From the NCBI GenBank assembly GCA_026545225.1, contig CM048845.1:30941001-31005000 (forward strand): a stretch of 64,000 bases of DNA. Direction: 5' to 3'. Each line of letters opens with the position of its first letter. The stretch's first letter is position 1. Source of the DNA: Cornus controversa. Its lineage: Eukaryota > Streptophyta > Magnoliopsida > Cornales > Cornaceae. The position numbers and the translations under genes were made by a program. Below, one piece after another: positions 35,630 to 60,903 of the stretch. The notes under the pieces are model-generated. The model ran no database searches and was not told the DNA's origin. It saw only the letters and a list, made by a program, of their open reading frames with translations.

Positions 35630-36723
35630 TCTATGATCCAAAAGAGTTTGAAGGCCTTCTCCACCTTTCCAGATGATATGAAGAAACCTTATATTTTGAT
35701 GTATTTGAACCAATGAGTAGTTTACATGTTTTTTTTCTTAGGCTCTAATTTTTCAAATGAAATATTTCTAGTTGAATTTCATTTTTCAAATGAAATCTTT
35801 GCTAGGCTCTAATAGTCAGTTGAATTCCCAGTCTTTGCAGCTACTTGGAACTGAAAGGTCAGTACCTCAAATTTTGGCTTGTGAGAAGTTCTATTCTGTT
35901 CTACTCTTGCTTTCAGGGGTGGGAAGACAGTTGCTTAGAGAAAAACCATCTTGGTTATTTCTTGTTTTCTCTAATAGGGACTCAAGGGTCTTCTCTTTTT
36001 GTGTTTATTTTCTTTATGGAAATCATGATGGTCCAACATGCTTGCAGTGGAGGAAAGAACTAGAAGGGTTTTTTCTTTTTTAGAAAGATTATAATGTTAA
36101 GAAGATGCACATATATATGGTTCTTTATTCAACTAGGGTCTTTTGAGATTTTCAATTAATTTATTTGTTCAATTTTTTTAAATGAGTTCCAATTAAGCTT
36201 AGCTCTGTTTATGGCATGCATTTCGGGCGGAATGTGATTTTTTTTATGTCAGATATGTGTGGTGACTGTTCTAGAGTTTGTTCTACCATAATTTATATAA
36301 TATATATATACACACACATGTACATATATACATTTATATGTGATTTATTTATTCAAGATGTGAGACCAAGAGAACAGAAAAAGTGAGAACAGATACTTTC
36401 ATATTGCTAGGAATGTGAATAAGTACGGGCAAAAGTCAAGAAACTCCTTCGTTAGCACCAACCTAAACCTTTAACTTTCCTTCCAAGTATTTAACTTTTT
36501 TTTTCTTTTCTTGTCTGGAAATCTCAAAATGCCCTTTAAGATGTTTGAAATGACTGAAATACCCTTCTTTGACATAATTTTTATGAACAATTTTACCCTT
36601 TCCTCAATCCCTGCCATTAAGAGTGGCAAAATTGTAAATTGATACGTTTGGTAAACGGGTCGACACAAACACGACACGTGAAAATTGCAATATTCAAATA
36701 TTATAATTTTATTCAAGCTTATA
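35630..36723. other. Intergenic, no assigned gene
   Basis: Open frames around 35772-36083 overlap each other on the same strand and have no recognisable domain. TA/CA repeats at 36298-36335. The last 90 bases contain AAACGGGTCGACACAAACACG, a dispersed plant repeat that continues beyond the Athila element (46945-47190). Confidence 0.4.
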
Positions 36724-38156
36724 TGATAAGTGTTCAATTCTATGCATTTGAACCCTCTTTATTGCATATGTTAGTTCCGTTTTTATGATTACCGAGATAT
36801 GTTTACGGTATTTTTGTGTTTTTGAGGTATTGCAGGTCTTGTAGTGAAAGGAGCAAATTTTGAGGCTATTTGCAGCTAAAGAACAAAAATTAGAAATGTA
36901 GCCAAAGGCATCTCGATCAATCGAGATGTTGATCTCGATCAATCGAGATCTCGATTGATCGAGATCTTATTTCGATTGATTGAAATCTCAATCAATCGAG
37001 ATCTAATCTCAATTGATCGAGATTCTGCAGAAGCCACTTGTCCACTTGCTCACCTGCTCTCCCACTTGCAACAAAATCTCCCTTTTTGCACGACTTAGGG
37101 GGATTATCTGACTTGAACAAGCCCCTTGGGGACCTTCTTCATACAATGGATATATATATTGATATATATATATATATATATATATATATGGTGGGCCCTA
37201 AGGTTAAAAAAGGAAGCCTTAAAGCACCAAAAAGTCACATATCTCATATATCTCTCAACACACATCAGATTATCCAAGGAGAGACTTTCGGGAGAGGAAG
37301 AGGAGAAGCTGAACCAGACCAAGAAGCTTCATCTTCTTCATCAATGGAAGAGTGCAAGGCAACCATGAGCAACTAATTTCTATACTAGGGTGTTGTTGAA
37401 GCCCCTAGCCATGTAAACATGTTCATTTTTGTAGCACTTGGGATTTGTAATTAAATGTTGATTATTTAGCCTAGTGATCATGTACACTAATACATTTTTT
37501 TTATATATTCATATGATTTTGGTTTTATTCTTGTCTTAGAGTATAATCTTCATGTGAGTGCACAACATTTGCATATTCCACAAGAAGTGCAAATGATGGA
37601 TAGATAATGGTGTTTAAATGAATGTGTTGTGTTTGTTTGTATAAACCATGCCAAGATAAGGTAGTTTGGATGCATGTAGGTTCACTTAGAGAGTAGGGTA
37701 ATTAGATAGTTAGTTAGGTTGAAGAGTTATGCTTATTGAAGATGGATTATGATAGGTGGACAAACACATTGATCTTTTGATATGTCATTGAGGTCACAAG
37801 CCTAATGACATTGTTAGGCATTTAATTAATGAATCCCATGCTTGCTACACTTATGAACATGTGAATGGCTAGTGGTGGAAACCAACCCTAGTTCTCTCTC
37901 CCATCCTTTACCCTTTAATTTTATTGTCATTTCATTCATGCAATAGTTTTTTTAAAACAAAAACTCAAAACCCTATTTTTAGGATTAAAGTGGAATTAAT
38001 CTTTCTTTAAGACAATTGCGACTAGTCCTCGTGGGATCGATACCCTCTATATAGAACCGTATCTACAAAGATTCGTGCTCTTGCGAGTGGTTAAATTATA
38101 TTTTGATAAAAAGGGCAAAATTAAGCTTACAATATAATCCGAGTTTAGCCACATCA
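36724..38156 (+). repeat. Athila 5' LTR
   Basis: It starts TGATAAGTG and ends CACATCA. 36905-37025 holds a cluster of palindromes (ATCTCGAT, 2 bases, ATCGAGAT), followed about 120 bases later by a long (TA) tract (37150-37190) that may act as the TATA region of U3. Short frames over the LTR are not genes. Confidence 0.93.
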
Positions 38157-38162
38157 AAATTT

Positions 38163-38180
38163 TGGCGCCGCTGCCGGGGA
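38163..38180 (+). promoter_or_regulatory. Primer-binding site
   Basis: TGGCGCCGCTGCCGGGGA lies six bases after the LTR end. It is the type found in Athila/Calypso-group elements, where it pairs with a cellular tRNA (reported as aspartate tRNA). The older element has the matching site at 59218-59235 on the minus strand. Confidence 0.85.
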
Positions 38181-38448
38181 CTACGGTTTTAATTGTCGCC
38201 ATTGAAAGATTAAATCTGGTTTAATTCTTTGGCTAGAAATTCTTTCATTCTTTTTGTATATATCTTGTTCTTATTGCTCAAATTTCTTGATTTTAGGTAT
38301 ACCACATAGCAGGCATCTAAAAGAGTTAAAGTTGGAACCCTTTGTGAGTATAAAGTCTGAAATTGGTGGTTTAAGTGCATTCATTTTTTTTTTTTTGTAT
38401 ATATTATTGTTTATTTTTCGTATTGAGGTGTTGTTCTACTATTAATGC

Positions 38449-41289
38449 ATGCTAGGTAGACGGTCATTGTCACTTCCTTTGCTTCCTTGTAATATTGAAC
38501 TTGAAAGAACACTTAGACAACGTAGAGGAACCTCTAGGGACCCTATATTGCCTAGGACTGAAAACATGAACCCAAATGAGAGACAACCTCCCGGACTACC
38601 TCCTTTTAATCATGAACAACCACCTCCACCTCCACCTCCTCAAGGAGAGTTGCTTATGGACTTTTACCTTCCGACTTCATTTGAAGTACCTTCATGTATT
38701 CAATTTCCGGATGTAGCGGCAAATCAATTCGAAATAAAGTCCTCCACCATCAATCTTCTTAATAGCTTCCATGGTCTCCCTAATGAGGATCCATACCGGC
38801 ACTTAGATTACTTCCTTTCTGTGTGTTCCACCATTCGTGTACCACACTTTACGGAGGATGATCTAAAGCTGCGTATGTTCCCATTCTCCTTAAAAGATAA
38901 AGCTAGAAGTTGGTTCAATTCCTTAGAACCTAACTCAATCCATTCTTGGGCGGAGATGCAAATAGAGTTCTTAAAAAAATACTTCCCAATGGGAAAGACG
39001 AGTGATATTCGGAGAGCCATCACCGGATTCACCCAAATTGACCAAGAACAATTTCATGAGACGTGGGAGAGGTTAAAAGATCTTCTTAAATCTTGTCCGC
39101 ATCATGCTGTCCCAAAATGGCAGCTAGTGCAAAGTTTTTATGATGGGGTGAGTGAGCAACATAGACAAATGATAGACTCCGCGTGTGGAGGTGGATACCT
39201 TTTGAAAAGCCCCGATGAGGCATGGAAACTTTTTCAAACCCTAAGCAATAATTCAGCTCAACGCTCCTCCACTAGGAAAGGGAAGGCCACCCAACCTTGT
39301 AGAGGAGTGCATGAAATTTCACGGGTAGATGAGGTTGCCATGCAAGTAGAAGCCTTGTCCCGAAAAATGGACCTAATCATGAAAAATGGGCTGCCTACTC
39401 CAAGCCAACCTGTTCAAAATCAGGAAGGATGTTCGTTTTTCTATAGTACCTCACATTTTGTGCGAGATTGTCCTATTATCGGGCAATCTCCCGATTATGC
39501 TCAAGAGCAAGCGAATGCCTTGTACTCTAAACAAATGAATGATCCATATTCAAACACGTACAATCCTGGTTACAAGAACCATCCTGCTTTTTCATGGAAA
39601 CCTCAAGAATCAAGTCCCTCTTTTCAAGGGTAGAATTCTTTCAATTCCCAATCTCAACAGCCTCATTATAGGCCAAATCCTCAGCCTTACCATCAAAGAT
39701 CTAATTACCAACAACCACCACCTCCTCCGAGAAGCCAAGGCTTTGAAGAAAGAGTGATAAGAAATCTTGAGGCTAATACCCGCTTATTGCAAACTCACTC
39801 TCAATCAATCTCTAAGCTTGAAGCGAATGCTCAATCTATGGCTAGGTTAGAAGCTCAAATCAGGCAACTAGCCAATGCCCTAAATAGAAGGGAGGAAGGT
39901 AAGTTGCCGAGTCAACTGGTGGCTAATCCTAAGGGTGTTCATATGATTGAAGATCCATCATCTTCATCTTATAATGCTCCTCCGGAGCAAGTTCAATCAA
40001 TCACCACCTTAAGGAGTGGTAAAGTCATCAATTCCAAGGTAGGGGAGGAAGACAGAAAGGAATCCCAAGAGCAACCCAAAAATCCAAAAGAATCCCAATT
40101 AAATCCAAAATTGTTTCCGTTAAATCCAAATGTGCATAACATCCCATTAAATCCAAAAGGAAAGGAAAGTGAAGTTGTGTTGTCATTAACTCCAAATCTT
40201 GACACTTCTTTTGAACCTCCGGTTCCTTTTCCTCAAAGATTGAAGGAACCTTCTCATTTTGGGAAGCAAGGAGAGAAAATCCAAGACATGATGGAGATCT
40301 TCAAACAAGTAAAAATCAATCTCCCTCTCCTTGATGCTATTCGACAAATTCCCTCCTATGCTAAATTCTTGAAGGACTTGTGCACTCAAAAGCCCAAATC
40401 TAGGAATAATGTTCCTAAGAAAGTCCTCTTAACTGAGCACATAAGCTCCATTTTCCAACACCAAGCCCCTCCTAAATTCAAAGATCTGGGTGCTCCGACC
40501 ATTTCGTGCACCATCGAAAATCAATCTTTTAAAAAGGCACTTCTTGATTTAGGGGCTAGTGTCAATTTGCTTCCATTCTCAGTTTACAAACAACTAGGTT
40601 TGGGGGAGCTTAAGCATACCACGGTTGTGTTGCAACTTGCCGACCGCTCGGTGAAGTAACCACGTGGCATCATTGAGGATGTAATCATTCAAGTGGACAA
40701 ATTCTACTTTCTGGTGGACTTCATAGTCCTTGACACGGAACTGGTCCAAAATCTGAATCGACATATTCCTATCATTCTAGGTCGTCCATTCTTGGCCACG
40801 GTAAACGCTTGCGTTAATTGCCGTACCGGAGTGATGGACATCTCTTTCGGGAATATGAAAGTCCGCTTGAACATCTTCAATGCTTCCCACCACACATCCG
40901 AAGACGAAAGTGAGTGCTTTTGTGTCGATGTAGTGGAAGACCTTGTTCAAGAAGCACTTCCTTCTATTCTTTCCAAGGATCCTTTAGAGGCATGCTTAAA
41001 TCACTTCAACTGTGACGATTTTGACATTGAGCAATCCATTTGTGAAGTCAACTCAATGCTCGATGTCAATACTGTCATGGATGTGCCTGATTGGAGAACT
41101 CCTAGAGAACCCTTTCCTTCGTTGATTAATTTCGTCGCTCCCCACGAAGTGGTGGAATTGAAGGACTTGAAAGACGGATCGTTGTTCAAAGTAAACGGGC
41201 AACGCTTAAAAGTGTGTGTGGATGACCAAGTCACCACCGAATATGTGGATGTCGTCACTTTGACGGATCCCGTATATTTTAACTCGTGA
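38449..41289 (+). pseudogene. Athila gag-protease with in-frame deletion of most of pol
   Basis: One reading frame is interrupted by two in-frame stops, TAG at 39631-39633 and TAA at 40657-40659. Gag (capsid) occupies roughly codons 70-270, with LRMFPFSLKDKARSWFNSLE. The zinc knuckle CSFFYSTSHFVRDC lacks its second cysteine. A glutamine/proline-rich linker and coiled-coil-like SISKLEANAQSMARLEAQIR follow. The aspartic protease has LLDLGASVNLLPFSVYKQLG then LGRPFLATVNACVNCRTGVM. After VPDWRTPREPFPS the frame passes directly into VVELKDLKDGSLFKVNGQRL, the C-terminal tail of integrase, and stops at 41287-41289. The polymerase and integrase core are missing cleanly in frame. ATG 38449 is the first in frame; a start at 38566 (MNPNERQ) is equally possible. 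Confidence 0.88.
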
Positions 41290-41454
41290 GCCGATTCGAA
41301 CGTCATGCCATAGACGTGTAAGGTGGTGTAGCCATGGTAGCTATCATGCTTCCATGATGTCCATTTTTTAATCCAAAGTAGGTTTTGTATCTAAGCAATT
41401 TTGTATCTAAGTCCCAAAAATCCAAGTCCATGAAGCATAACTTAAGCTGGCTAT

Positions 41455-41860
41455 TTTTGAGCATCTCGATTGATCGAAACCAAGATCTCGATCAATCGAG
41501 ATTTCACTCTCGATTGATCGAAATATTGCAGAGAATTCATTGAACCCAAAGTCCCGAGAGGTAGTATTCTTCGATAGCACTTCGATAGGTCCTCGATCGA
41601 TCGAAATTTTGATTGATCGAAATGGGATTTCGATTGATCGAAGTAAATTCTTGATTAATCGAAGTAAAGTCTCGATCGATCGAAATAAAATCTCGATTCA
41701 TTGAATAAATCTCGATTGATCGAAGGAAAATCTCAATTGATCGAAGCAAATCTCGATTGAGCGAAACTGATCTCGATTGATCGAAGTGGGATTTCGATCA
41801 ATCGAAATCTCGATTGATTGAGATGCACATCTCGATCAATCGAGATGCACGCGATGCCTG
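41455..41860 (+). repeat. Array of TCGATTGATCGA-type palindromic units
   Basis: About 20 copies of (A)TCTCGATTGATCGAAAT and variants in both orientations fill this 400-bp stretch between the protease frame and the last frame. The same motif is clustered in both LTRs (36905-37025 and 45705-45825). Each full unit has two 8-base arms (ATCTCGAT/ATCGAGAT) around two central bases, so it can form a short hairpin or be a dimeric protein site. A role as enhancer or promoter element is inference. Confidence 0.85.
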
Positions 41861-42107
41861 CACGTGAGGCGAATTAGTATTTAAACCGTTGGGCTTCCCT
41901 CTCATTTCAAAAGACCATCCAACTTCTCCCTTTCTTCGAGCGATCCAAGGCTTTCCCCGAGCACTGTCGCGCACTTGATCTACCATTCCTGACCATCCAC
42001 CGCCGTTCGACATAGTTCGAGATCGCCGCGAGCACACCCACGCTCTTCTCTTCGCGGCTGCGAGTGGGTCTTCTTCTGTTTGTGCCGAGCATCATCTTCA
42101 CCTTGAG

Positions 42108-42480
42108 GTAAGTGATGCATGGCTACATTTTGCGTACTTTCTCGCTATTTTTGATAGTTTTACGGCGTAATAAACATAGACAAATGATGTCGGGTTGGAT
42201 TGGTGCATTTGCGATATTCATAATGGGATTTTGCAAGTTTCGGGGGGGGGGGGGGTAGGAATGCATGTATGGGTGAGATATTACACTTTTTTTGCTTCGA
42301 ATGCTTATTGTACGGTTTGCAACCACGACCCATCGTTTCGGTTGCATCCGCTCAAGCTGTCTTGTTGAGATCGAATTCTTTTGAATACTTGTGTCAGCAC
42401 CATGGACTAGGGCCTCATTTTCAGTTTAGAATTCCTCTTATTTTATCTTGTATTTACGTAATTTTTGGAATAAAGTGTAG
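42108..42480 (+). promoter_or_regulatory. Candidate 5'-UTR intron ahead of the envelope-position frame
   Basis: A consensus donor (GAG then GTAAGT at 42108) and an acceptor (AAAGTGTAG ending at 42480) bracket 373 AT-rich bases with a G14 run (42242-42255). The intron ends 14 bases before the ATG at 42495. Splicing from here or from an LTR leader would deliver the late frame as a subgenomic message. A TATTTAAA at about 41877-41884, downstream of the palindrome array, could be a TATA box for an internal promoter. No direct evidence. Confidence 0.5.
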
Positions 42481-42494
42481 ACTGCTCCGAGATC

Positions 42495-43718
42495 ATGGCG
42501 AGGGTGAAGAATGCCCCCGGTTCTGTTCGAGACGTGCCTGGGCGAGCCTTCCGGTCTCGGAAGTTTCACCCAGAGCAGATTTTTGACTTGAGAGAGTTCG
42601 AGACACGTCCCGACAACGCATGGACCGTCACCAAGCTTAGGAGGCGTCGCCTCGACCGATTGTGTATGCCTCCCACTGACGTGGCACACGAGCGCTTAGT
42701 GCAGGTTTTCTACGAGCGCATGACCTACTCCTGCACAGCGCCGGACACATTAGAAATGGTCGTGGGCCCCACGACGATTACGATTACACCGAGCCGGATT
42801 ACGCAGATGCTCGGCATCCCTCACCAGCAGCCGCCAGACATGGTTGATCAGGACGGTCGACCGCTTTACAGGGCCGCCCTTCCAGCAGACTCGACACTGT
42901 TCTCCATCGTGATGGACATGTGTCGCAGGGTGTTTACCACGCCCAGTCACAATTGCACGTCCAAATTGATGTGCCCGAGCAGATTATGGTTCCTGGACAC
43001 CGTTCTCATCAAGAACGCGTGTCCCCTGCAGCATGTGGTAGAGCGCAGAGGCGACCTCCTCCGTTGCCTCTATGCTTTCCACATGGGCACGTGGTTTTCT
43101 GTCCTGTCATTGGTATGGGGGCAGATGTTCAAGGTCTGGGACGGCCTCATCAACAAGAGGATGCGGCGAGCAGCGAGTTGGCGGCTTCCCTTTCCTTTCC
43201 TTGTCGCCGCTTTTCTGAGCTGTGCCAGTATACCAGTTAGTGATACTGACGTTCAGTTGGCACCGCCCGCCTGCTTCACATGTACTCAGTGGGAACGGGT
43301 GAGGCGACACTTAGAGCGACAGGACCACCAGGGTGATCCACCAGACGATGTAGATATGGATGCCCCGGTGGAGATGGATGAGGGAGAGCCTGCAGGGGAT
43401 GAGTCGGATGATGAGGAGATGGAGGAGGAGGAGATGGATATTGCTGCAGAGCGGCATGACATCCTAGCGATAGGCTACTTCTACCTGGCGGCTGACGTAG
43501 AGCGGCTCCAGCAGGGTTTTGACGAGCATGTCCAGGTGACGCAGAGTCAGCTGGCAGGCATTCGGATGGACATTTCATCTCTGGCACAGGGTCAGAGGGC
43601 TATTTTAGACGAGTTCCGTGCCTTCCGGCAGGACCTGCAGTTCCTGCTTGCCGGACGAGCTTCCACCTCCACCTCTACTCCCACCGAGCCACCACCACCA
43701 CCACCCGCCCTCGAGTAG
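42495..43718 (+). CDS. Athila-type last reading frame (envelope position; plant transposon protein), 407 aa
   Basis: An intact frame between the integrase tail and the 3' LTR. Residues about 20-60 are basic (RSRKFHPEQIFDLREFE, RRRRLDRL), followed by the domain usual for this position in Athila elements (ERLVQVFYERM..., ITPSRITQMLGIP). The C-terminal third has a strongly acidic stretch (DDVDMDAPVEMDEGE to MEEEEMDIAAE), a probable coiled coil (AADVERLQQGFDEHVQVTQS) and a proline-rich end. I see no signal peptide and no clear membrane anchor, so an envelope function cannot be read from it. Codon use is GC-rich compared with the AT-rich surroundings. The function of this protein is not established. 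Confidence 0.75.
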   Translation: MARVKNAPGSVRDVPGRAFRSRKFHPEQIFDLREFETRPDNAWTVTKLRRRRLDRLCMPPTDVAHERLVQVFYERMTYSCTAPDTLEMVVGPTTITITPSRITQMLGIPHQQPPDMVDQDGRPLYRAALPADSTLFSIVMDMCRRVFTTPSHNCTSKLMCPSRLWFLDTVLIKNACPLQHVVERRGDLLRCLYAFHMGTWFSVLSLVWGQMFKVWDGLINKRMRRAASWRLPFPFLVAAFLSCASIPVSDTDVQLAPPACFTCTQWERVRRHLERQDHQGDPPDDVDMDAPVEMDEGEPAGDESDDEEMEEEEMDIAAERHDILAIGYFYLAADVERLQQGFDEHVQVTQSQLAGIRMDISSLAQGQRAILDEFRAFRQDLQFLLAGRASTSTSTPTEPPPPPPALE

Positions 43719-45510
43719 CTGCTTTTATTTGTCCTTTATGCTTTACTTTCTGTATTTTTCTTTCTTTATGTTTGATAGGCCATGTTGGCCATGTTTTCTT
43801 TCATTTTTAGTTTTTTTTTAGTATTCCAGATGCATGTACACTTTGTACTAAACTCATTTTCATATTTATGGAATACATTTATCTTTTCTGTTATACCATG
43901 TGTTATCTTTCCTGTCTTTATTTTTGCTTTCTGTCAATATATCTGTTCTCTATACTTTGACTATGTATGTAGTACCACTTGCCTAATTGTTATATGCGAT
44001 TCAGTTGATGATTTCCGTTTATTACCGCCTGGTTTAAATTCCCAATACTGTTGAGATTGCTTCAACGCAGTATGGCGGTAATAAAGAAAGGCAGCCCCTT
44101 TGCATGCTATACGTTAGCGTGCCTGGATAGTTAATATCTTATCGCATAGACCTCTTAGACAATTGGGAAACACCAGTTCAGACCCTTAGATATGCAGTGA
44201 TCTTGACATTGTCCATTTGTGCATAATTCTTTTATTATGCTCTTTTCATATACTTTTTGTTCCTTTTAATGCTCGTGGTATCCAGTTGGTGTTCTGTGCA
44301 GGTTTTTCTTATTTGCAGGATGACCGCTATTGTGGAATACCATTTTTGTCGCATTCTGCAATCCCGGTAACTTCTTTCCTTGTTCTTCTTGTCCAAACAT
44401 TGAGGACAATGTTGCATATAAGTTTGGGGGTGTGGTATGTTATACCACTTGCATATGCATGCAATGTTCAGTCTTAGTATTGAGTGTCATTGTAGAGCAG
44501 TTTTCTTGATATTTTTGCATGCTTGCTATGATGTCTTGCTTTTTAAAGGAAGTTCATTCGAATAAATGTCCGAGGTAAATGCAGCAGGTAGTTAAGAACT
44601 TTAACATTGTAAATACCCGCACTTTTGTAAGCTATATAGTAGGCTAGAATGGTCTACATTTTTGTCCAAATATGAGCACGTATAGTTCTTGCCCTAAATT
44701 TGTCCTTAACTGCACAAATTCGCACACATGCATTTTAAATTGTGGGGTATAAGTCTGATGGAGAATTTTGTAAATTTCTGTTTTTATCTGAACAACTTAG
44801 AGAATAAGTTCTTCCGGTTGTTGTAAAAAAAAAAAAACAAAACATTATAAAATAAATGAAATAAGCCTTCTCACTCAATAAACCGGATTTCTATGCCTCA
44901 AAGCAGGGAGTATTCACGTATAAGTGTGCAAGGTTGAGCAATAATAAGCGGGTGGCTTGCTTAAGTTCATCGCCTTGTAAGCTCGGTTATTAAGTCCGAG
45001 GGGTGCTTCTTCACCTAATGCCCTAAAGCCAATTGGTTTGGGAGTCATTGGCCCAATGCCGCTACATGGGCTTACAAGAAAGCCAAAAGAGCTAAGCATT
45101 GCACGGTCATCCGCACATGAGCAATCATGAAATTTTGTGATAATGAACGGCAATGGCGAGCTTTTTCAATGAGTTTTTCTCTTAAAAATAGATTTGTTCT
45201 TTTTCTTCTCCAAATATGACAAAAGCCACGCGTTAGAATGCATGTTCACTTTTCAAAGAGGATATTGGGGTCGGAATTGGTATGTTTACTCGGGTTGGCC
45301 ATTATGTGGGGACCGTCGTTTATTTGTAGCTTGTGAAAGTCCATTTTTGCTAATGACCACATAGTTCTGTAATACTTGTTGCATTTGCCAAATGTGAAAT
45401 GAACGGATGATCGCCCTTTATCTAGTTGATGACTGAGCATGATTAAACTTTTGTATAAGATAGTTAATTTTATTTTTATAATATCGCATTGCTAAGGACT
45501 AGCAATATGT
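43719..45510 (+). other. Athila 3' untranslated region with an internal polypurine tract
   Basis: Non-coding. TAAGTTTGGGGGTGTGG at about 44419 duplicates the true polypurine tract at 45511 (AAGTTTGGGGGTG). It follows TTGAGGACAATG, a motif common upstream of Athila 3' tracts. 44935-45110 and 45250-45510 have recognisable relatives in the older element (60170-60903, inverted). Confidence 0.75.
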
Positions 45511-45523
45511 AAGTTTGGGGGTG
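45511..45523 (+). promoter_or_regulatory. Polypurine tract
   Basis: AAGTTTGGGGGTG abuts the 3' LTR, the primer for second-strand synthesis. Confidence 0.85.
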
Positions 45524-46944
45524 TGATAAGTGTTCAATTCTATGCATTTGAACCCTCTTTATTGCATATGTTAGTTCCGTTTTTATGATTACCGAGATAT
45601 GTTTACGGTATTTTTGTGTTTTTGAGGTATTGCAGGTCTTGTAGTGAAAGGAGCAAAGTTTGAGGCTATTTGCAGCTGAAGAACAAAAATCAGAAATGCA
45701 GCCAAAGGCATCTCGATCAATCGAGATGTTGATCTCGATCAATCGAGATCTCGATTGATCGAGATCTTATTTCGATTGATCGAAATCTCAATCAATCGAG
45801 ATCTAATCTCGATTGATCGAGATTCTGCAGAAGCCACTTGTCCACTTGCTCACCTGCTCTCCCACTTGCAACAAAATCTCCTTTTTTGCACGACTTAGGG
45901 GGATTGTCTGACTTGAACAAGACCCTTGGGGACCTTCTTCATACAATGGATATATATATTGATATATATATATATATGGTGGGCCCTAAGGTTAAAAAAG
46001 GAAGCCTTAAAGCACCAAAAAGTCACATATCTCATATATCTCTCAACACACATCAGATTATCCAAGGAGAGACTTTCGGGAGAGGAAGAGGAGAAGCTGA
46101 ACCAGACCAAGAAGCTTCATCTTCTTCATCAATGGAAGAGTGCAAGGCAACCATGAGCAACTAATTTCTATACTAGGGTGTTGTTGAAGCCCCTAGCCAT
46201 GTAAACATGTTCATTTTTGTAGCACTTGGGATTTGTAATTAAATGTTGATTATTTAGCCTAGTGATCATGTACACTAATACATTTTTTTTATATATTCAT
46301 ATGATTTTGGTTTTATTCTTGTCTTAGAGTATAATCTTCATGTGAGTGCACAACATTTGCATATTCCACAAGAAGTGCAAATGATGGATAGATAATGGTG
46401 TTTAAATGAATGTGTTGTGTTTGTTTGTATAAACCATGCCAAGATAAGGTAGTTTGGATGCATGTAGGTTCACTTAGAGAGTAGGGTAATTAGATAGTTA
46501 GTTAGGTTGAAGAGTTATGCTTATTGAAGATGGATTATGATAGGTGGACAAACACATTGATCTTTTGATATGTCATTGAGGTCACAAGCCTAATGACATT
46601 GTTAGGCATTTAATTAATGAATCCCATGCTTGCTACACTTATGAACATGTGAATGGCTAGTGGTGGAAACCAACCCTAGTTCTCTCTCCCATCCTTTACC
46701 CTTTAATTTTATTGTCATTTCATTCATGCAATAGTTTTTTTAAAACAAAAACTCAAAACCCTGTTTTTAGGATTAAAGTGGAATTAATCTTTCTTTAAGA
46801 CAATTGCGACTAGTCCTCGTGGGATCGATACCCTCTATATAGAACCGTATCTACAAAGATTCGTGCTCTTGCGAGTGGTTAAATTATATTTTGATAAAAA
46901 GGGCAAAATTAAGCTTACAATATAATCCGAGTTTAGCCACATCA
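45524..46944 (+). repeat. Athila 3' LTR
   Basis: Nearly identical to 36724-38156. It has a shorter TA tract and keeps more CG in the palindrome region, whereas the 5' LTR shows several TG/CA changes there. Confidence 0.93.
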
Positions 46945-46949
46945 TTATA

Positions 46950-52264: not shown

Positions 52265-52510
52265 TAATTAAAGAGACAAAGCTTCATCTATCATTGCCTG
52301 CAAATGATGCCACATGGAATTCGTTATGTGATTTTTATAGGCTGCCATCTATATCGCACCATCATGAGATAAGTTGAGACGATTCAATATACCATATCCA
52401 CTACTATTACCATTCCCCCATCAACGACATTAACATCTTCTTCTCCAAACTGCATAAAAAAACTATCTTCTAATACATTTTGACGAATGAAATTGTGAAT
52501 CGTACAATAA
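52265..52510 (-). pseudogene. C-terminal fragment of a Harbinger-type (HARBI1/ALP1-like) transposase
   Basis: The minus strand reads QRLIVTAYCTIHNFIRQNVL and EDSFFMQFGEED, and after a frame slip AAYKNHITNSMWHHLQAMID. This is the end of plant DDE_Tnp_4 transposases and their domesticated relatives (C-IHNFIR, then a helix ending in MW). The catalytic core is absent. It is fused in frame to the Athila protease frame upstream (junction near 52540). Confidence 0.7.
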
Positions 52511-53761
52511 GCGGTTACTATGAGTCGTTGTCCAATCAACTTATAAGAAGGAGGAAGAGACTCGATTAGAGCCTTCCATTTTGGAAAGTTATTTACAATG
52601 GTGACATCAAGTATTGCATTTACATCTTGAATTGATTGCTCGATGTCAAAATTGTTACAATTGAAGTGACTTAGGCACGCCTTTAAAGGGTCTTTGGCTA
52701 AGATGTGAGGGAGCATTTCTTCAATAAGCTCATCCACAACATCTACCCAAAAGCAATAGCTTTCATCATTAGAAGTGTGGTGGGATGCAATGAAGATGCT
52801 CAACCTTACCTTTATATTCCTAAATGAGATGTCCATCACCCCAGTATGAAAATTAACACAAGCTTTAGTCACAGCCAAGAAGGGATGACCTAGAATGATC
52901 AGAATACATCGAGTAGGGTTTTGCACGGGTTCCGTATCAAGGATTATGAAGTCCATTAGAAAATAGAATGTCAACTTGAATGATTACATCTTCAATGATG
53001 CTACATGGCTGCTTTACCGAGCGATCGGCAAGTTGCAACACTACCATGGTTAGCTTAAGTTCCCCTAGCCCTAATTGCTTGTAAACTGAATAAGGAAGTA
53101 AGTTAACATTAGCTCCCAAATCAAGGAGAGCCCTCTCGAATTCTTTGTCATCGATGATACAAGACATTATCGGGGCACCTAGATCTTTGAATTTAAGAGG
53201 GGTGTTACATTAAAAGATGGAATTCACCTGCTCGGTTTGAAGGAATTTCTTAGGAACTTAATTCCATGATTTACGTTTTTGCGTACATAAGTCCTTTAAA
53301 AATTTAGCACATGGGAGGATTTGCCTTACAGCATCAAGGAGAGGAAGATTAATTTTTACTTGATTGAAAATCTTCATGATATCTGAATGAAGTTCTTAAC
53401 TTGGAGTAGATGATAATTGGACTTCAGTTGCCTTTCCTTTATCTTTTGATGAATTTGGATGTTTGGAAGAAACATTTGGATTTGGAATTGAGTTGTAATT
53501 GATTGAGCTTGTTCTTGATGCATATTCAAGGAAGAAGAAGAAGGCTCATCAACTATGTGTATTCCTTTAGGGTTTACCACCAGTTGGCTCGGTAATCTCC
53601 CATCCTCTCTTCTATTCAATGTATTTGCTAGTTGTCCCATTTGGGATTCTAGATTTGAAATGGATTGAGAGTAGGAATGCAACAATTGAGTATTGGACTC
53701 AAGGTTACCTAAAGCCGCCAAAATCTTGTCCTCAAATTTTAGATTTCGGGGAGGAGGTGGT
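52511..53761 (-). pseudogene. Older Athila: gag C-terminus and protease
   Basis: From 53761 down: ALGNLESNTQLLHSYSQSIS and MGQLANTLNRREDGRLPSQL (gag linker), then the protease ALLDLGANVNLLPYSVYKQL, and after a frameshift LGHPFLAVTKACVNFHTGVM. The last Athila residues are NFPKWKALIESLPPSYK. It is homologous throughout to 39754-41120 of the young element but has several frameshifts. The remainder of pol is replaced by the transposase fragment. Confidence 0.85.
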
Positions 53762-56700
53762 TGTCACGCCCCGGAATCCGGACCGCCGGGACTCCCCTGG
53801 ACCGACCCGAACCCCGAGTCGCGAACCCGTTTACTCAACCTCACGCTATAACCACCACCTGGTCATACAATCTCAATTTCTAATTATTTTTACAAAAATT
53901 GGGCATGACCCATTCTAAATAATCAGCTCCTGGCACGTTACACCTGCTTTACAATTCATATGGACACTTCTGGGCACGTGTCCCCCCAGCATTAATATCT
54001 AACAATAAAAATGGACACTTCTGGGCACGTGTCCCCCCAGCATTTCTACAACATGCATAATATAATCAAAAAATACATGTCTCAGTCCTCGAATGTCCGT
54101 ATTAAATACATACATCACATGAATGAAATACATCTGAAGGGATTGGCTCAACATAATCACTTCATACATTTAATCCAAATGTACAACATTCATCTACTAT
54201 CCTGAACATACATTAGATTCTAAGGAATCTAACTACTACCTCTGCAACTGGTGCTATCAGTTTCCTCAACTGACTCCTTAATCTGCAATACCTGCAAAAC
54301 CTGGGAGGGGGTGAGCTTAAAGGCCCAACAAGGTTTGTAGAACCATACTATCATCGCAGCAGCAGGTCGATCCTCACATATTCTCAAAAATATACATGCA
54401 CTCAAATATATCACGATATTTAAAGTCATGCCCCTCCTAGCATATATGAACCAACAATGCACATGGCAGTTCTAGCACTTATGCACATTTAAATCTAATA
54501 CACATGACTTATGTAAATCATTTACAACGTGTCCAAGAGAAAAACACATCAAACATCAATATGTATAGAAACATATATGAACAGAAAGCATTTACATGAA
54601 CAATGTAAATCAAATACCACATCGCCTACTCAACAAGATCCATAGAGTCATGCATAAATGCACATTAAATCGCTACGTGTCTACATGATATGTATACATG
54701 CTTTTTACCCATAAACAATCACATTTTTCAAATCATGTGTGATGCTTTCCACCTCAATGCATATACATAGATATATGTATATATATATATATATATATAT
54801 GTATATCAACTTGACAGTCACATTTCGTATATATAACTCACGCCACAAATTTCTAGAAATCAATTCAACTGAGGACTTCGCTTGTCACAATCCATAGTAA
54901 GGGTCGCATTGGGACCACATACTCTGCTCATGCTTTTCGGGCTACTAACCCGACGGAAGCGACACCCGCTTGGCCAAGTTTTGGGTCTTGCACCCTAGAG
55001 TTCAATACCCTTATTAATTCTCACACATGTCCCAAAAATCTCGTCACATAGTGCACATAATCACATCAATGCACTTATCCACACCACACCATGCATTTTA
55101 TCAATTCAATGCATTTTCCTTCTCAACTCAAGATTGTCACAGTGTCATCACACTCATATCATGGAAATCATCATGCTTATGCATTTTTTGAGAAAATCAT
55201 ATCTTTCGTGCATAAATTTATAAACACCACATTTTCACGTTTTTCACCAAGGAACACACTTTTCACCGAGATCATTCCTAGTCACATTTGCACATACACA
55301 ACATATATATATATATATATATATGTCACATCCTGCATTTGCTACGAATAACCAACATGCATTCATACAACCATATGCAATCACGCAATATATGTATATG
55401 TACATCATGTCACTCATATAGGTAGTAAAAACATACATAACACTTCACATACTTCATGCTTTTCCAATGTCCTTCTATGTCATAATCAATTTAGCATGCA
55501 TTTCTACTACTGCACCACATATATAAGCACGTATATACTTACATATATTCAACTCATGTATAAAAATCACATACGCATGCAAGGCAACATCTAACTAAAT
55601 ATACATCTGTAATTTAGCATACTTTACACGACTCAATCTGTAAATATGCATATAACGATGCAAATCAGCATCTACATTTAACAATATTCTCATCACCCAA
55701 GCCCACATATATATATATATATATACACACATATATATATATCCTCACATCCCACGTATATATATATATATAAACACCTTTATATATATATATGCACATA
55801 TATATACGCAAGCACCACATATGACTAAATTAAGAACATATGTAAAATTAACCAACATAATTAAAATATACATAGAGATAGAGGCAAGAATCAACTTGCC
55901 TTAGGTCCCGCCTTTACTGTGCCCGCGCCTGCAAAGCGGCCTACTTCCATGCTCGGTCCAGTCCTGTGTCGAAGTCCACACGAACAATTCCATGAACCAC
56001 TTCATCTCCCTTTGTTTCCATGCTTGGTCCAACCCACGTCTTGGTTCCAATCCAGTCCAGCTCCATTTCAAATCTAAAGCCCAATTGATCTCAAGGAAAC
56101 CCAATATGGCAGCCCACTTTAATTTAAAATTTTGAGGCCCAAACTACTCGCCTAGGCCCAACCCACAAACAATTCCCATAGTTGTCTCTCTCAACCAATA
56201 CTCACCATATACCTTCATCATCCATACATATACATATTTGTATATGTATATATACATATCACATTCACTACAAAACCAAGCTGCCAAATTCATGACCCTC
56301 ATCTCCAAAGCCACAACCAAAGACTAGCTAAACGACACAAAACAGGCTGTCCAATAGCGCCATGAGAATGCCACCATTTGCCACCTCAAGCCACTATTAT
56401 CTGAACCAAATGGAACTCATAAACTAGCCACCATCAGCTCTACAAACCCGAGCTAAAACAACCCCCAACTGCGCCATCATCTTGCCGCCAAACAGCCTTT
56501 ACGGTACCACCATGTGCACCCCCAAACAACCACAAAATAGCCGCTACCAAACCCAATAGCGAGCACCCCAAACAGTCCACAAATCAGCCCCAAAACGGCC
56601 ACCAATAAATCCCAAAAATTAGACCCAATCAACTCACCTCAACCACGAAGACTCAACCGAACCCAGTCGCAACTGTCGGCCAAACAGTCCCCAGCCGAGA

Positions 56701-57710
56701 CCCCCTTTCACCACCACCGTGGAACCGGCATCACCACCTACCTAAAACCCCAACTAAGCATAACAAATCAAACCCATTTGAGGGCCAACACCGAACCACC
56801 GAGTGCCGTCGCTGCCATCCACGGCCAAACAAACCCCCAACCAAACCAGCTGAAGCTCCTCCGCGATCAACCCTCTTCGGTCCGACCCTCCATCGAACAC
56901 AACACAACCGTGAAAACCCATCCAAACACAACCCAATCACTTACCGCCGGAACAGTCGCCGTCCTCACCACCAGCCGAAGCTCACCAAGTCGTCGCAACA
57001 CCGAGAAGACCCACCGAAAGCAACCCTCATTCGCGCACAGCCCAGCTGCACTGAGCCACCACGCGACACCGAGCAACTCCACTGCAAGTCACCACCGCTG
57101 CCGACGGCCGGCCGAAGCTCCGCCGTGAGCACCACCTGCCGCCGTCACGGCCTCTCTTTCCTCTTTCCCGATCCCTCTTCTCAGTTCTTCCTTTCTCTCC
57201 CCGACTTCTCCTTCTCTCTCTCTTTCCTTTTTCTTTTCTTTCTTCTTTTTCTTCTTTTCTCTTTTTCTTTTCTTTTCTTTTCTTCTTTTCCTTTTTCGGC
57301 AGATTCCTTCTCCTCCTTTCATTTCTTATCTTCTTTTCTTGCTTCATTATACACCACATACACATATACTTGTAATCATGCATGTGCACCCACCTTTCTT
57401 CATAATTGCATATAAGCCCATACATATACACAATTTTATGTGTATATATAATAATGTAGGTACTTAATAGATATATTTATAATTTAATATAAATATATCT
57501 CCTATATATATATATATATATCCATATATATATATATACACGTATCCTCCGGCATTACTATAATTTCATGTACAAAATCTTCTCCATCTCTTTATAAATA
57601 TATAATTCCATGTATATACATCCACCTTTGTCCCGAATTTAACTTATTCAAAAAAATTAAATTCGGTCAAAATTTACCCAAAATCAGTCAAAATAATTTC
57701 GGTCCTTACA
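53762..57710. mobile_element. Solo LTR (3.95 kb) inserted in the older Athila gag
   Basis: It begins TGTCACGCCCCGGAATCC and ends TTTCGGTCCTTACA, with GTGGT on both sides (53757-53761 and 57711-57715). The gag frame resumes on the far side, proving an insertion. There is no primer site, coding domain or second LTR. Its length and TGTCACGCCCCG start suit the long LTRs of Tekay/Del-type chromoviruses, though I classify it from memory. It has a 50-bp tandem duplication (53959-54045; GGGCACGTGTCCCCCCAGCA twice), TA tracts (54776-54800, 55303-55324, 55703-55800) and a GC-richer part (56280-57200). The open frames in it are not genes. Confidence 0.85.
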
Positions 57711-57715
57711 GTGGT

Positions 57716-58848
57716 GGAGTGGTGTAGAAACTTGAATTTGGTTGATATGGTCTAGGTTGGAATTGAGATGGACCTTGTTGTCCTTGAGGTGCCTGAGGTC
57801 TTTGATTTTGATAATGACCTTGGTTTCTATATTGAAAATTGGTTTGATCTCTCCAACCTGGATTATAAGAGTTTTGATAAGAATTTTGGCCCAGCCTAGA
57901 ATAGAGTGCATTTACATGCTCTTGAGTAAATTCGGGGTATTTTGCTACCTGAGGACAATCCCTAATATAATGAGAGGGACTAGAGCAGAAGGAACACACA
58001 TCATGTGTAGGAGTAGGAATGGAACTCGGAGGAGTAGGAGAAGGAGAAGAAGTCCCCGCTAATATAACTTGGTCTAGTTTCTTAGATAGAGCATCTATTT
58101 TCATTTCGATTGCGTGTTCCTTACACAATTCAAAGATACTCTCAGTTTTGGCATTGAAGGGAGCAAGATTCTTACCCTTCCTTTCAATTGAAGAACGTTG
58201 AGATGAATTTTCACTCAAGTTCTCGAAAAGAGTCCACACCTCATCGGGACTTTTAAGAAAGAACGTACCCCCACAACTAGCATCTACCATTTATTTATGG
58301 GCTAACCTAGACCGTCATAGAAACCTTGTACCAATTGTCTTTTAAGAATAGCATAGTGTGGGAATGATTGCAAAAGGTCTTTCATTATCTCCCACATTTC
58401 ATGGAAGACTTCTACATCGCATTGAGAAAAACAAATGATGGCTTTCCGCACATCACTAGTCTTTCCCATTGAAAAGTATTTCTTTAGAAACTCCCGTTGC
58501 ATTTCTACCTAAGAGTTAATAGAATGAGGTTTTAAGGAATTGAACCATTGTTTGGCTTTATCCTTAATTGAGAAGGAAAAGAGATGAAACCTTAGGTCAT
58601 CTTCCATGAAGTATGTTGGTTGAACATACTTCCAAGGGTCTTCATTAGGTAGCCCATGGAAACAATTAAGAAGACTAATGGTGGAGGATTTGATTCAAAG
58701 TGATTTGTTGCCACATTTGGGAAATGAATACACGATGGTGATGCATAGGTAGTTGGAACATAGAAATCCCTAAGAACCTCCACACCCAGTGGGGTGGTGG
58801 TCAAAGTATTGGATTTTGCTGTGCATGTATATTATTATTATGTGCCAT
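57716..58848 (-). pseudogene. Older Athila: gag N-terminal and central part
   Basis: The minus strand from ATG at about 58848: DFYVPTTYASPSCIHFPNVA, then FLKKYFSMGKTSDVRKAI and RQLVQGFYDGLG, and from 58290 DASCGGTFFLKSPDEVWTLF. The zinc knuckle CSFCSSPSHYIRDC is complete here, unlike in the young element. A glutamine-rich stretch follows, up to the solo-LTR junction. Stops and frameshifts occur near 58300, 58505 and 58600. Confidence 0.85.
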
Positions 58849-59240
58849 GTTTTCTCTCCTAGTTTCTCTAAACAATATAAGGTCCCTAGGAATGTCGTTA
58901 TGTTGTCTAAGAGTTCGTTCAAGTTCAAGATCACAAGGTAATAATGGTAATGATATGGATCTCCTACCTTGCATATAAAAGTTACAAACCTAAATTATAT
59001 GCAAAAATAGAATTTAAATAATTAAGTGCAAAAATTGGATACTATACTCGCAAAAAATCTAAGCTCAAGTCTCGAAGCCTTAAATGAGTGATAAATACCT
59101 AAAATTTAGCACTAAATAAGTAAGAACAAAAATACTTACAATTAAAGGATTTAAAGAATGAGTTAGGTTAAAAATAAAACTAGACTCAAGCTTATGATTT
59201 TAGTAATTAAACCATAGTCCCCGGCAATGGCGCCAAAAAT

Positions 59241-60163
59241 TGATGTGAAGACTTTTTGTGTTTTGGCAATCAAAGTAAACTTTACCACTCACAATAGAAC
59301 GAATCCTTGGTACGATAGGGCTCTGTGTAGAGGGTGTCGATCCTACAGAGACTACGTTAGTTTAAAAGTTATAATCAAAAATTGGTTCTGGATCAATTAG
59401 GAAATGATGATTGTTTGTTTGCTTAAGCTACTTGAATACACATAAATACATAAAACTCCCCCAATTCATTACAAAATTGACATAGTTACATGGCTAGGGT
59501 TTTGCCCAATCCTAGAGAAGGAGTTAGTTGATTATGATAGTGAGTAGGCACTCCATAGACAGAGATGATTCTAGCTCTATATGGTCTTCAAGGCTTTGTC
59601 AAGACCTTCTTTGAAGCTTTCCCTCTCTAGAACTTCTCTCTCTAGAACTACAAAAATCCTCTCTATTACAAAAATATGTTCTATATCTAACTATGAGACT
59701 AAAATTATGTTTTTATCTGATTTCAAACCCAAAATACCCCAAAACTCACGTGAAAAGGCTTCTTGGAAATGATTGGTGACAAGTGGCCAAGTAGCTAAAA
59801 TATCTTTGTTGACAGCTGTCTACTGCAGGCATTGGTGATGCATCGTAAATAGCATTACGATGCATCTTAATTACAATTACGAAACATCGTAATTCCTTGT
59901 CTTTGAAACGTGATTTCTTATAGAATTGTAGCTTCGGCTTTCACAGGTACTCTACTAAACCTCATTGTAAGCCTTCAATTAAATGGTCATGAGCTTGGAA
60001 TGCATTCTTGAGATGATAGCAGAGTCGGATTAAGCCAGTTTTCATAATAGAACCTGAAATCATAAAGAACACGAAAACACATAAAAACTATACAATATGT
60101 GCAACTATGGGATCAAAATACATAAGTAAATGTGCGAGAATTCATAACATTCAACGCTTATTA
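59241..60163 (-). repeat. Older Athila LTR (923 bp)
   Basis: On the minus strand it runs from TAATAAGCG (its TG start has become TA) to CACATCA. It is followed by the primer site TGGCGCCATTGCCGGGGA (59235-59218) and preceded by the polypurine tract ACTTTGGGGGTG (60176-60165). Having a primer site on one side and a polypurine tract on the other shows that internal sequence lies on both sides. Around 59838-59900 it has a cluster of GCATCGTAA/TTACGATGC palindromes, in the same relative place as those in the young family. Confidence 0.8.
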
Positions 60164-60903
60164 CACCCCCAAAGTTAGATATTGCTAGTCCCATAGCAAT
60201 ACAAGAGGATTTAATTTAAAACAACTATCTTACTTCTGTTTTTATGGGAAATGAGGTTGCATTTAGAGAATGCAACAAGCCTGTTAAACCCCTAGACATG
60301 TTTAGTGGATGAGTGAATTCTTATTGGGTTTAACTTGCTTGTTAAACTCACAAAAATATGGAAAAAATGGTTGATTAGCTCAGTCATCAACTAGTAAGGG
60401 ACGATCGTCCTAATTTTCATCAAGGCGACGAATACAATAAGTATTAGGGAACTAAATGGACATCAAAATCAAAATTCTTTTGAAATCACGAATTATACAA
60501 CAGTCCCCACATAATGCTCAACTCGATACAAATACAAGTGCTAACCCTAAAATCGTCTTTGAAAAAGTGAATGTACATCATAATGCGTGATTTATTGTTG
60601 TAATTTGAGAATAAATACAACGCTCATCTTTAAAAGAACATCTTCTTGAAAAAGATTGCAGAAGCATACCATTGAAACATAAAAAAATTTCAAAAGCTTA
60701 TTTATAGGTAGTCTTGCAATGTCTAAATCCCTTAAGCTTTCTAGCAAACTCATATAGCGAGCTTTAGGTCAATGACTCCCAAACCGAACAGTTTTAGGGC
60801 ATTAGGTGAAGAAACACCCAAAAGGACTTAATGACTCGAGCTTACTAGGCTACGAACTCAAATGGGCCATTTGCCTTATTATTGCTTAATATTGCACATT
60901 TTT
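60164..60903 (-). mobile_element. 3' internal end of an Athila element upstream of the shared LTR
   Basis: Non-coding, homologous on the minus strand to the 3' region of the young element: GCTCAGTCATCAACTAGTAA, CAGTCCCCACATAATG, GACTCCCAAACCGAAC and TTATTATTGCTTAATATTGC have counterparts at 44935-45520. Homology stops at about 60903. Confidence 0.7.

What the first reader, a model, noticed from the sequence alone, without database searches (positions are those of the whole stretch)
36724..46944. Recently mobilised Athila derivative that lost its polymerase by an in-frame deletion
Seen: perfect TTATA duplication, primer site, polypurine tract, and LTRs differing by about 10 substitutions in 1.42 kb by eye. 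The protease frame (VPDWRTPREPFPS) runs without a shift into the integrase tail (VVELKDLKDGSLFKVNGQRL) near 41125-41150, so reverse transcriptase, RNase H and integrase core are gone while gag-protease, the tail and the late frame remain. Known: an LTR element without these enzymes cannot move itself. Inferred: it is a trans-mobilised, internally deleted lineage, and the clean in-frame joint may be a fixed family trait rather than damage to one copy.
Basis: partly seen in the sequence, partly recalled or inferred. Interest (0 to 1): 0.75.

Follow-up and report, generated by a model that had tools for sequence, protein, structure and literature searches.

The report
Polymerase-less retrotransposon family with living helper
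A plant jumping element that lost its copying enzymes through one clean in-frame deletion exists in hundreds of copies of that same shortened form, apparently copied by an enzyme-bearing sister family in the same genome; this kind of dependence was already known, but here the founding deletion can be read almost to the base.

Summary
The element at 36724-46944 has an LTR pair (10 substitutions in 1421 bases), a TTATA duplication, primer site, polypurine tract, gag-protease, a 55-codon integrase tail joined in frame to the protease linker, and a 407-aa late ORF. One correction: this copy's gag-protease frame has two in-frame stops.

The genome decides the interpretation. The joint occurs at 290 places in the window's form plus 77 in a form 3 bases longer, reversed-pattern controls 0. 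A pol-bearing sister family (1009 places with the uncut left boundary) is 93-94% identical in gag-protease, has the same LTR ends, primer site and polypurine tract and carries 2793 bases (931 codons) more, encoding RT, RNase H and integrase. Of 16 dated pol-less copies, 9 show their own 5-bp duplication, so the deleted form was inserted repeatedly, presumably by the sister's enzymes. Variants that arose in gag among pol-less copies are mostly synonymous (N 7: S 26), so Gag was probably functional while the lineage spread.

Pol-less gag+env Athila families under purifying selection were described in Arabidopsis in 2008 (PMC2410132). This is a well-resolved new member of that kind; unlike there, a same-family helper survives.

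The parts
36719..36723 (.). target-site duplication TTATA, left copy
36724..38156 (+). 5' LTR (TG...CA)
   Evidence: 98.3% to 3' LTR by BLAST; 10 substitutions
38163..38180 (+). primer-binding site, probably tRNA-Asp type
   Evidence: TGGCGCCGCTGCCGGGGA six bases after the LTR; tRNA-Asp priming is reported for the relative Diaspora (PMC1142308, passage); the tRNA match itself is recalled, not tested
38449..39630 (+). gag, first part, up to an in-frame stop at 39631-39633
   Evidence: PF03732 E 7.9e-21
39634..40656 (+). gag C-terminal part, linker and start of protease, up to an in-frame stop at 40657-40659
   Evidence: PF13650 E 0.022, below cut-off
40660..41117 (+). rest of protease and post-protease linker
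   Evidence: homologous to plant protease-linker proteins and 94% identical in DNA to the pol-bearing sister over 40241-41117
41111..41122 (+). joint: 2793 bases (931 codons) of RT, RNase H and integrase present in the pol-bearing sister are absent here
   Evidence: the missing block carries PF00078, PF17917, PF17919, PF17921 and PF00665
41122..41289 (+). integrase C-terminal tail in frame with protease, 55 codons and stop
41466..41843 (+). palindromic TCGATTGATCGA-type repeats, as in the LTRs
42495..43718 (+). late (env-like) ORF, 407 aa, open
   Evidence: PF20167 E 0.0018, below cut-off (given three codons more at the 5' end); sister family has the same ORF, region 83% identical
44419..44434 (+). 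second, internal polypurine-like tract, exact 16-base copy of the 3' one
   Evidence: near-copy in 10 of 10 further elements looked at
45510..45523 (+). 3' polypurine tract
45524..46944 (+). 3' LTR
46945..46949 (.). target-site duplication TTATA, right copy

Best explanation
This is one copy of a non-autonomous Athila-like (Ty3/gypsy) family. A pol-bearing ancestor lost RT, RNase H and most of integrase in one in-frame deletion of 2790 bases (930 codons), with CC at both ends; a later 3-base loss gave the window's form. The shortened RNA keeps LTRs, primer site, polypurine tracts, gag, protease and the late ORF. It was reverse-transcribed and inserted by enzymes of a pol-bearing sister family, which shares the ends those enzymes must recognise. 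Shown: fixed joint, copy numbers, partner, deletion length, shared ends, separate insertions, synonymous bias in gag. Inferred: order of the two deletion steps, packaging together, trans supply of pol, and that Gag came at least partly from pol-less copies themselves.
For: Joint at 290 places with up to 3 mismatches, control 0, and 77 in the 3-base-longer form, control 0; 40 of 40 scored matches and 30 of 30 loci read, the window's own included, carry it. Sister family, 12 young copies: gag 93-94%, linker-protease 93-94%, tail and following bases 88-90% identical to the window; late ORF region 83%; RT, RNase H, integrase domains in the copy scanned; 1009 places with the uncut boundary, control 0; many long open gag-pol frames. 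Same LTR end and primer site in 9 of 12 pol-bearing and 14 of 20 pol-less pieces, same polypurine tract where the piece reached it. Of 20 pol-less copies, 16 gave an LTR pair, K 0.0021-0.0707, and 9 of the 16 have a matching 5-bp duplication. Variants shared among pol-less copies, not seen in 13 pol-bearing ones and not of deamination type: gag 38782-40048 N 7: S 26, omega-like 0.07; spacer pseudo-frames, all variants of that type, 0.78-1.02.
Against: No RNA, particle or new insertion was observed. 29 of 30 sampled copies have a stop or frameshift in 38782-41286, so Gag too may come largely from others. In linker-protease, variants unseen in pol-bearing copies, all substitution classes, give 0.80 (95% 0.49-1.36) or, with matched opportunities, 0.60 (0.37-1.02): not clearly different from neutral. 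The LTR tree puts the young pol-bearing LTRs inside the pol-less ones, so exchange between families complicates dating and selection.
Confidence: 0.88

Rival explanations
1. Damage to a single copy, or an assembly error.
For: The copy itself is decayed (two stops).
Against: Same joint at 290 + 77 places, on 11 contigs among the first 100 places listed; 30 of 30 loci read.
Confidence: 0.01
2. The shortened form multiplied mainly as DNA (tandem and segmental duplication), not by retrotransposition.
For: Tandem pairs about 8.7-8.9 kb apart, close to one internal region plus one LTR (places listed); one pair and one trio of copies under 0.8% apart; 4 of 20 copies lacked one LTR in the piece fetched.
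Against: 9 of 16 copies with an LTR pair have their own 5-bp duplication; mean pairwise difference is 7.5% and 5 of 406 pairs are under 2%.
Confidence: 0.06
3. Purely parasitic lineage: the selection bias was acquired in pol-bearing elements and imported by recombination; nothing encoded by pol-less copies matters.
For: Linker-protease variants unseen in pol-bearing copies look near neutral with all classes; LTR exchange is likely; 29 of 30 sampled frames are closed.
Against: In gag, variants unseen in any of 13 pol-bearing copies still give N 7: S 26. But 12 of the 13 are one young clade, so older donors were not sampled; and the bias in the late ORF was not tested against the partner.
Confidence: 0.3
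4. Several independent deletions that look alike.
For: Two forms of the joint.
Against: They share the left and right break and differ by 3 bases; the longer one joins the two parental sequences directly.
Confidence: 0.03

Closest known systems
Pol-less Athila families of Arabidopsis thaliana (Marco and Marin 2008, PMC2410132; parts 1-2 of 6, the Discussion and passages read)
   Same: gag or gag+env between LTRs, no pol, purifying selection on gag and env, explained by enzymes supplied in trans; 7 of 11 families there have no pol
   Different: There pol-less elements were never seen within pol-bearing families, so helpers must be other families; here a pol-bearing sister with the same ends survives and the deletion is readable. 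The paper's text has no hit for 'protease' or 'deletion'.
RLG_Cereba / RLG_Quinta pair of wheat centromeres (PMC11302176, passages)
   Same: autonomous and gag-supplying non-autonomous partners sharing primer site, LTR ends and polypurine tract
   Different: centromere-specific pair; [quoted passage not shown]
TR-GAG elements; AT5TE33540 transposed in ddm1 (PMC8704663, passages)
   Same: gag-coding, pol-less, direct evidence that such elements can move
   Different: Copia element with a single gag ORF; here also protease, integrase tail and late ORF
P0083 and perhaps P0093, unnamed metagenome proteins
   Same: P0083: protease fused to an integrase C-terminal part; P0093: protease followed by what looks by eye like a shortened integrase tail
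   Different: other breakpoints and distant sequence (34% and 43% to the query), so separate events if real; database proteins are open frames by construction, so being in frame says little

Membership tests
Athila lineage (Ty3/gypsy) | gag of retrotransposon type | tested here: met
   PF03732 E 7.9e-21
Athila lineage (Ty3/gypsy) | tRNA-Asp primer site just after the LTR | tested here: inconclusive
   TGGCGCCG-type site 6 bases after the LTR; Asp by analogy with PMC1142308 and recall, tRNA not aligned
Athila lineage (Ty3/gypsy) | env-like ORF downstream of pol | tested here: inconclusive
   407-aa ORF in the right place, PF20167 E 0.0018 below cut-off, no protein hit at E <= 0.001 among 7996 scored
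Athila lineage (Ty3/gypsy) | RT placing it in the Athila clade | not tested
   no RT in this copy; the sister's RT was found but no RT tree was built, and no name shown in the list says Athila; the lineage name rests on recall and on the layout described in PMC1142308 and PMC2410132
Autonomous / non-autonomous LTR pair (criteria as in PMC11302176) | lacks RT and integrase core | tested here: met
   2793 bases absent against the sister
Autonomous / non-autonomous LTR pair (criteria as in PMC11302176) | partner with the same primer site, LTR ends and polypurine tract | tested here: met
   LTR end and primer site in 9 of 12 pol-bearing and 14 of 20 pol-less pieces; polypurine tract in 3 of 12 pol-bearing pieces (the others reach into host flank instead) and 14 of 20 pol-less, 3 of these with a one-base change; the window's own primer site differs by one base
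Autonomous / non-autonomous LTR pair (criteria as in PMC11302176) | actual cross-mobilisation | not testable with these tools
   no transcripts or new insertions available
TR-GAG | single ORF encoding only Gag | tested here: not met
   protease, integrase tail and late ORF also present
LARD / TRIM (definition recalled) | no coding capacity | tested here: not met
   gag domain and open late ORF

The most novel reading that the evidence does not exclude
The shortened family is a selected Gag donor rather than a parasite: it supplies shell protein (and late protein) in bulk while the sister supplies enzymes, and the leftover integrase tail fused behind the protease is itself kept, perhaps to dock with the helper's integrase complex. 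That at least one, perhaps two, distant plant lineages show their own protease-to-integrase-tail fusion (P0083, P0093) would fit a recurrent use of such a fusion.
Probability: 0.15. Interest if true: 0.65.

Novelty: new member of a known kind. Interest (0 to 1): 0.45.

Why it matters
Pol-less Athilas with selected gag and env have been an indirect argument for cooperation between retroelements, because in Arabidopsis no same-family helper was found (PMC2410132). Here dependent and helper live in one genome, share the recognition ends, and are separated by one readable in-frame deletion, in hundreds of copies each. That makes the open question, whether Gag made by pol-less copies matters or they merely ride along, testable by comparing selection and expression in the two families.

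Tried and rejected
Assembly error and single-copy damage: rejected. Protein search restricted to the joint and tail: 17 candidates, none at E <= 0.001. Late ORF protein search: 7996 candidates scored, none at E <= 0.001. Viral contigs: 7 pattern matches, none a relative. NCBIfam for two proteins: none. Pfam on the RT-start piece L077 found nothing; RT was found on the next piece. One search aligned 13 minus-strand loci without turning them; its per-copy table is wrong for those and is replaced. One search's late-ORF and spacer numbers included L007, whose late part is foreign (0.546 different); one search leaves it out. Predicted Cornus proteins (P0008, P0022, P0023, P0029, P0030) seem to lack much of RT too, but gene-model splicing may cause this; not used as evidence. 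A paper search on a second polypurine tract found nothing to the point in its listing, and the Retand paper's passages did not help.
Full report
What is there. The window lies in a 771.7 Mb assembly held without a name; relatives are plant proteins where named. The element has LTRs 36724-38156 and 45524-46944 with 10 substitutions in 1421 aligned bases (K = 0.0071) and a perfect TTATA duplication. At recalled plant rates of 5e-9 to 1.3e-8 this is about 0.27-0.71 million years, uncalibrated. One frame, 38446-41289, holds gag, protease and, without a shift, the integrase tail; it is interrupted by stops at 39631 and 40657. About 10 substitutions and 0.34 stops would be expected in this frame since insertion, and two or more stops have a chance of 0.046. 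Several stop sites recur in copies that are not close to each other, which suggests recurrent mutation, though inheritance or exchange is not excluded. The late ORF (42495-43718) is open.

What relatives look like. Of 1298 relatives of the protease-tail piece 120 are listed. Among the rows whose alignment reached residue 138 many continue from the protease linker into a pre-RT stretch (LELKPLP...) that the window lacks; others end early or diverge. P0083 shows a separate protease-to-integrase-C-terminus fusion and P0093 may show another (the latter by eye). I saw this exact joint in none of the rows printed, and a search restricted to the tail found nothing at E <= 0.001.

The joint is a family trait. 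A 1011-base query from protease to tail gave 40 scored matches of 4587 first-look candidates: the window itself and 39 others at 95-96%, all running through the joint. This sample is biased, being the best matches. A pattern on the joint gave 290 places, reversed control 0, and the form 3 bases longer gave 77, control 0. The 30 loci read, the window's own included and 13 turned to the right strand, all carry the joint; two have the longer form. Twenty-nine of the 30 have at least one stop or frameshift in 38782-41286; for L023 the counts are inflated by misalignment.

The partner. A protein query spanning protease and RT start scored 122 places of 9624 candidates, about 50 of them with open frames of 1850-1880 aa by my hand count of the rows. 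Of four types sampled, one is 94% identical to the window in DNA from 40241 to 41117 and resumes at 41122; the others are 72-83% identical. It carries 2793 bases (931 codons) more, with RVT_1, RNase H, the integrase zinc-binding domain and the integrase core. Its LTRs are of the same family (about 88-90% by BLAST; 5-12% different from the pol-less LTRs), its late ORF region is 83% identical. The uncut left boundary occurs at 1009 places, control 0. The longer joint (CCTCC followed by ATTTTTGG) joins the two parental sequences directly, with CC on both sides, so the original deletion was 2790 bases and the window's form lost 3 more (inference).

Shared ends. LTR end and primer site CCACATCAAAATTTTGGCGCCG were found in 9 of 12 pol-bearing pieces and 14 of 20 pol-less ones; one further pol-less row had the primer site after a different LTR end, and in the remaining rows it was cut off or changed. 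The window's own primer site differs by one base from the usual form. The tract AAGTTTGGGGGTG before TGATAAGTG was seen in 3 of 12 pol-bearing pieces (two of them from one array; most of the others show host flank there) and in 14 of 20 pol-less rows, 3 of those with a one-base change. These are the criteria used for autonomous and non-autonomous pairs in PMC11302176 (passages).

Movement. LTR pairs were sought for 20 pol-less copies chosen from the first 100 listed places; 4 lacked one LTR in the piece fetched, 16 gave K from 0.0021 to 0.0707, three of these on partial LTRs, and 9 of the 16 have a matching 5-bp duplication; in some of the other 7 the ends were not read or differ. The highest value, 0.0707, belongs to a copy whose two LTRs fall in different clades, probably a recombinant, so the usable range is 0.0021-0.0367. 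The joint-bearing form has thus inserted repeatedly and, in some copies, recently.

Trees. In gag-protease the 12 young pol-bearing copies form one clade (99/100) among star-like pol-less copies; one other pol-bearing copy lies among the pol-less (bootstrap not fully settled). In LTRs the young pol-bearing ones sit inside the pol-less set, and the other one with the window's group. The sister is therefore a relative of the ancestor, not the ancestor itself, and LTRs have probably been exchanged.

Selection. Over 29 copies (L023 dropped) the frame gives dN 0.0325, dS 0.0896, ratio 0.36; pseudo-frames of the spacer 0.93-1.09, with L007 included. With 26 copies (L010, L023, L026, L027 dropped), variants in two or more copies that are not C-to-T or G-to-A give 0.14 (0.09-0.20); single-copy ones 0.52 (0.39-0.68). 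Leaving out every variant also seen in 13 pol-bearing copies: gag N 7: S 26 (0.07), linker plus protease N 13: S 9 (0.37). By finer parts: first gag part N 4: S 19 (0.05), gag C-terminal part and linker N 9: S 11 (0.22), protease N 2: S 4 (0.14), post-protease linker N 5: S 1 (1.17), tail N 1: S 1. The same count within the pol-bearing family gives 0.20 for gag and 0.23 for linker plus protease. Results against: with all classes the linker-protease gives 0.80 (0.49-1.36) or 0.60 (0.37-1.02) with matched opportunities, and deamination-type shared variants unseen in the partner give 0.83-1.04. So selection on gag in the pol-less lineage is supported; on protease the evidence is weak, and on the tail inconclusive (all classes, partner not excluded: N 10: S 12, 0.32, 0.11-0.67). 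The first 99 codons or so of the late ORF give N 8: S 14 (0.16) with 25 copies, partner not excluded, against 0.78-1.02 in pseudo-frames; 7 of the 25 copies have a stop there.

What is known. PMC2410132 reported that only 4 of 11 gag-defined Athila families of Arabidopsis contain pol, that many pol-less ones carry gag or gag+env under purifying selection and are probably moved in trans; it also says that pol-less elements were never seen within pol-bearing families. PMC8704663 reports direct transposition of a gag-only element (passages). The phenomenon is therefore known; what this case adds is a same-family living partner and a readable founding deletion. My searches for print on such a joint were made; I saw none in their listings or in the passages read, which is weak evidence of absence.

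Noticed in passing
44419-44434: A second polypurine-like tract inside the element, an exact 16-base copy of the 3' one (3 matches in the window with up to 2 mismatches, 0.05 expected); a near-copy is present in 3 of 3 pol-bearing and 7 of 7 pol-less copies looked at, so it may prime plus-strand synthesis a second time.
   Followed up: partly
36913-37020, 41466-41843, 45713-45820: The same TCGATTGATCGA-type palindromic repeats lie in both LTRs and between the integrase tail and the late ORF; the pol-bearing copy sampled has similar ones there. They could be promoter-like repeats for a late transcript.
   Followed up: no
52384-60901 (minus strand): An older, broken Athila-like element: protease part 76% identical to this one, gag part 66%, and a 3' end plus LTR start in an order that suggests a recombinant.
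   Followed up: no
other contigs, e.g. three places 8794 bases apart on C6: Tandem chains of joint-bearing copies spaced by about one internal region plus one LTR, as from unequal recombination; the pol-bearing copy sampled also has element sequence directly before its 5' LTR.
   Followed up: no
38780-42790 across copies: Mean divergence among pol-less copies rises from about 4-7% in gag-protease-tail to 8-12% in most of the first 550 bases after the tail stop and 12-21% further downstream, partly constraint, partly alignment noise in repeats, perhaps partly mosaic 3' halves.
   Followed up: partly
P0093: A metagenome protein cluster (10 member sequences) that may be another protease-to-integrase-tail fusion with a different breakpoint; read by eye only.
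   Followed up: no
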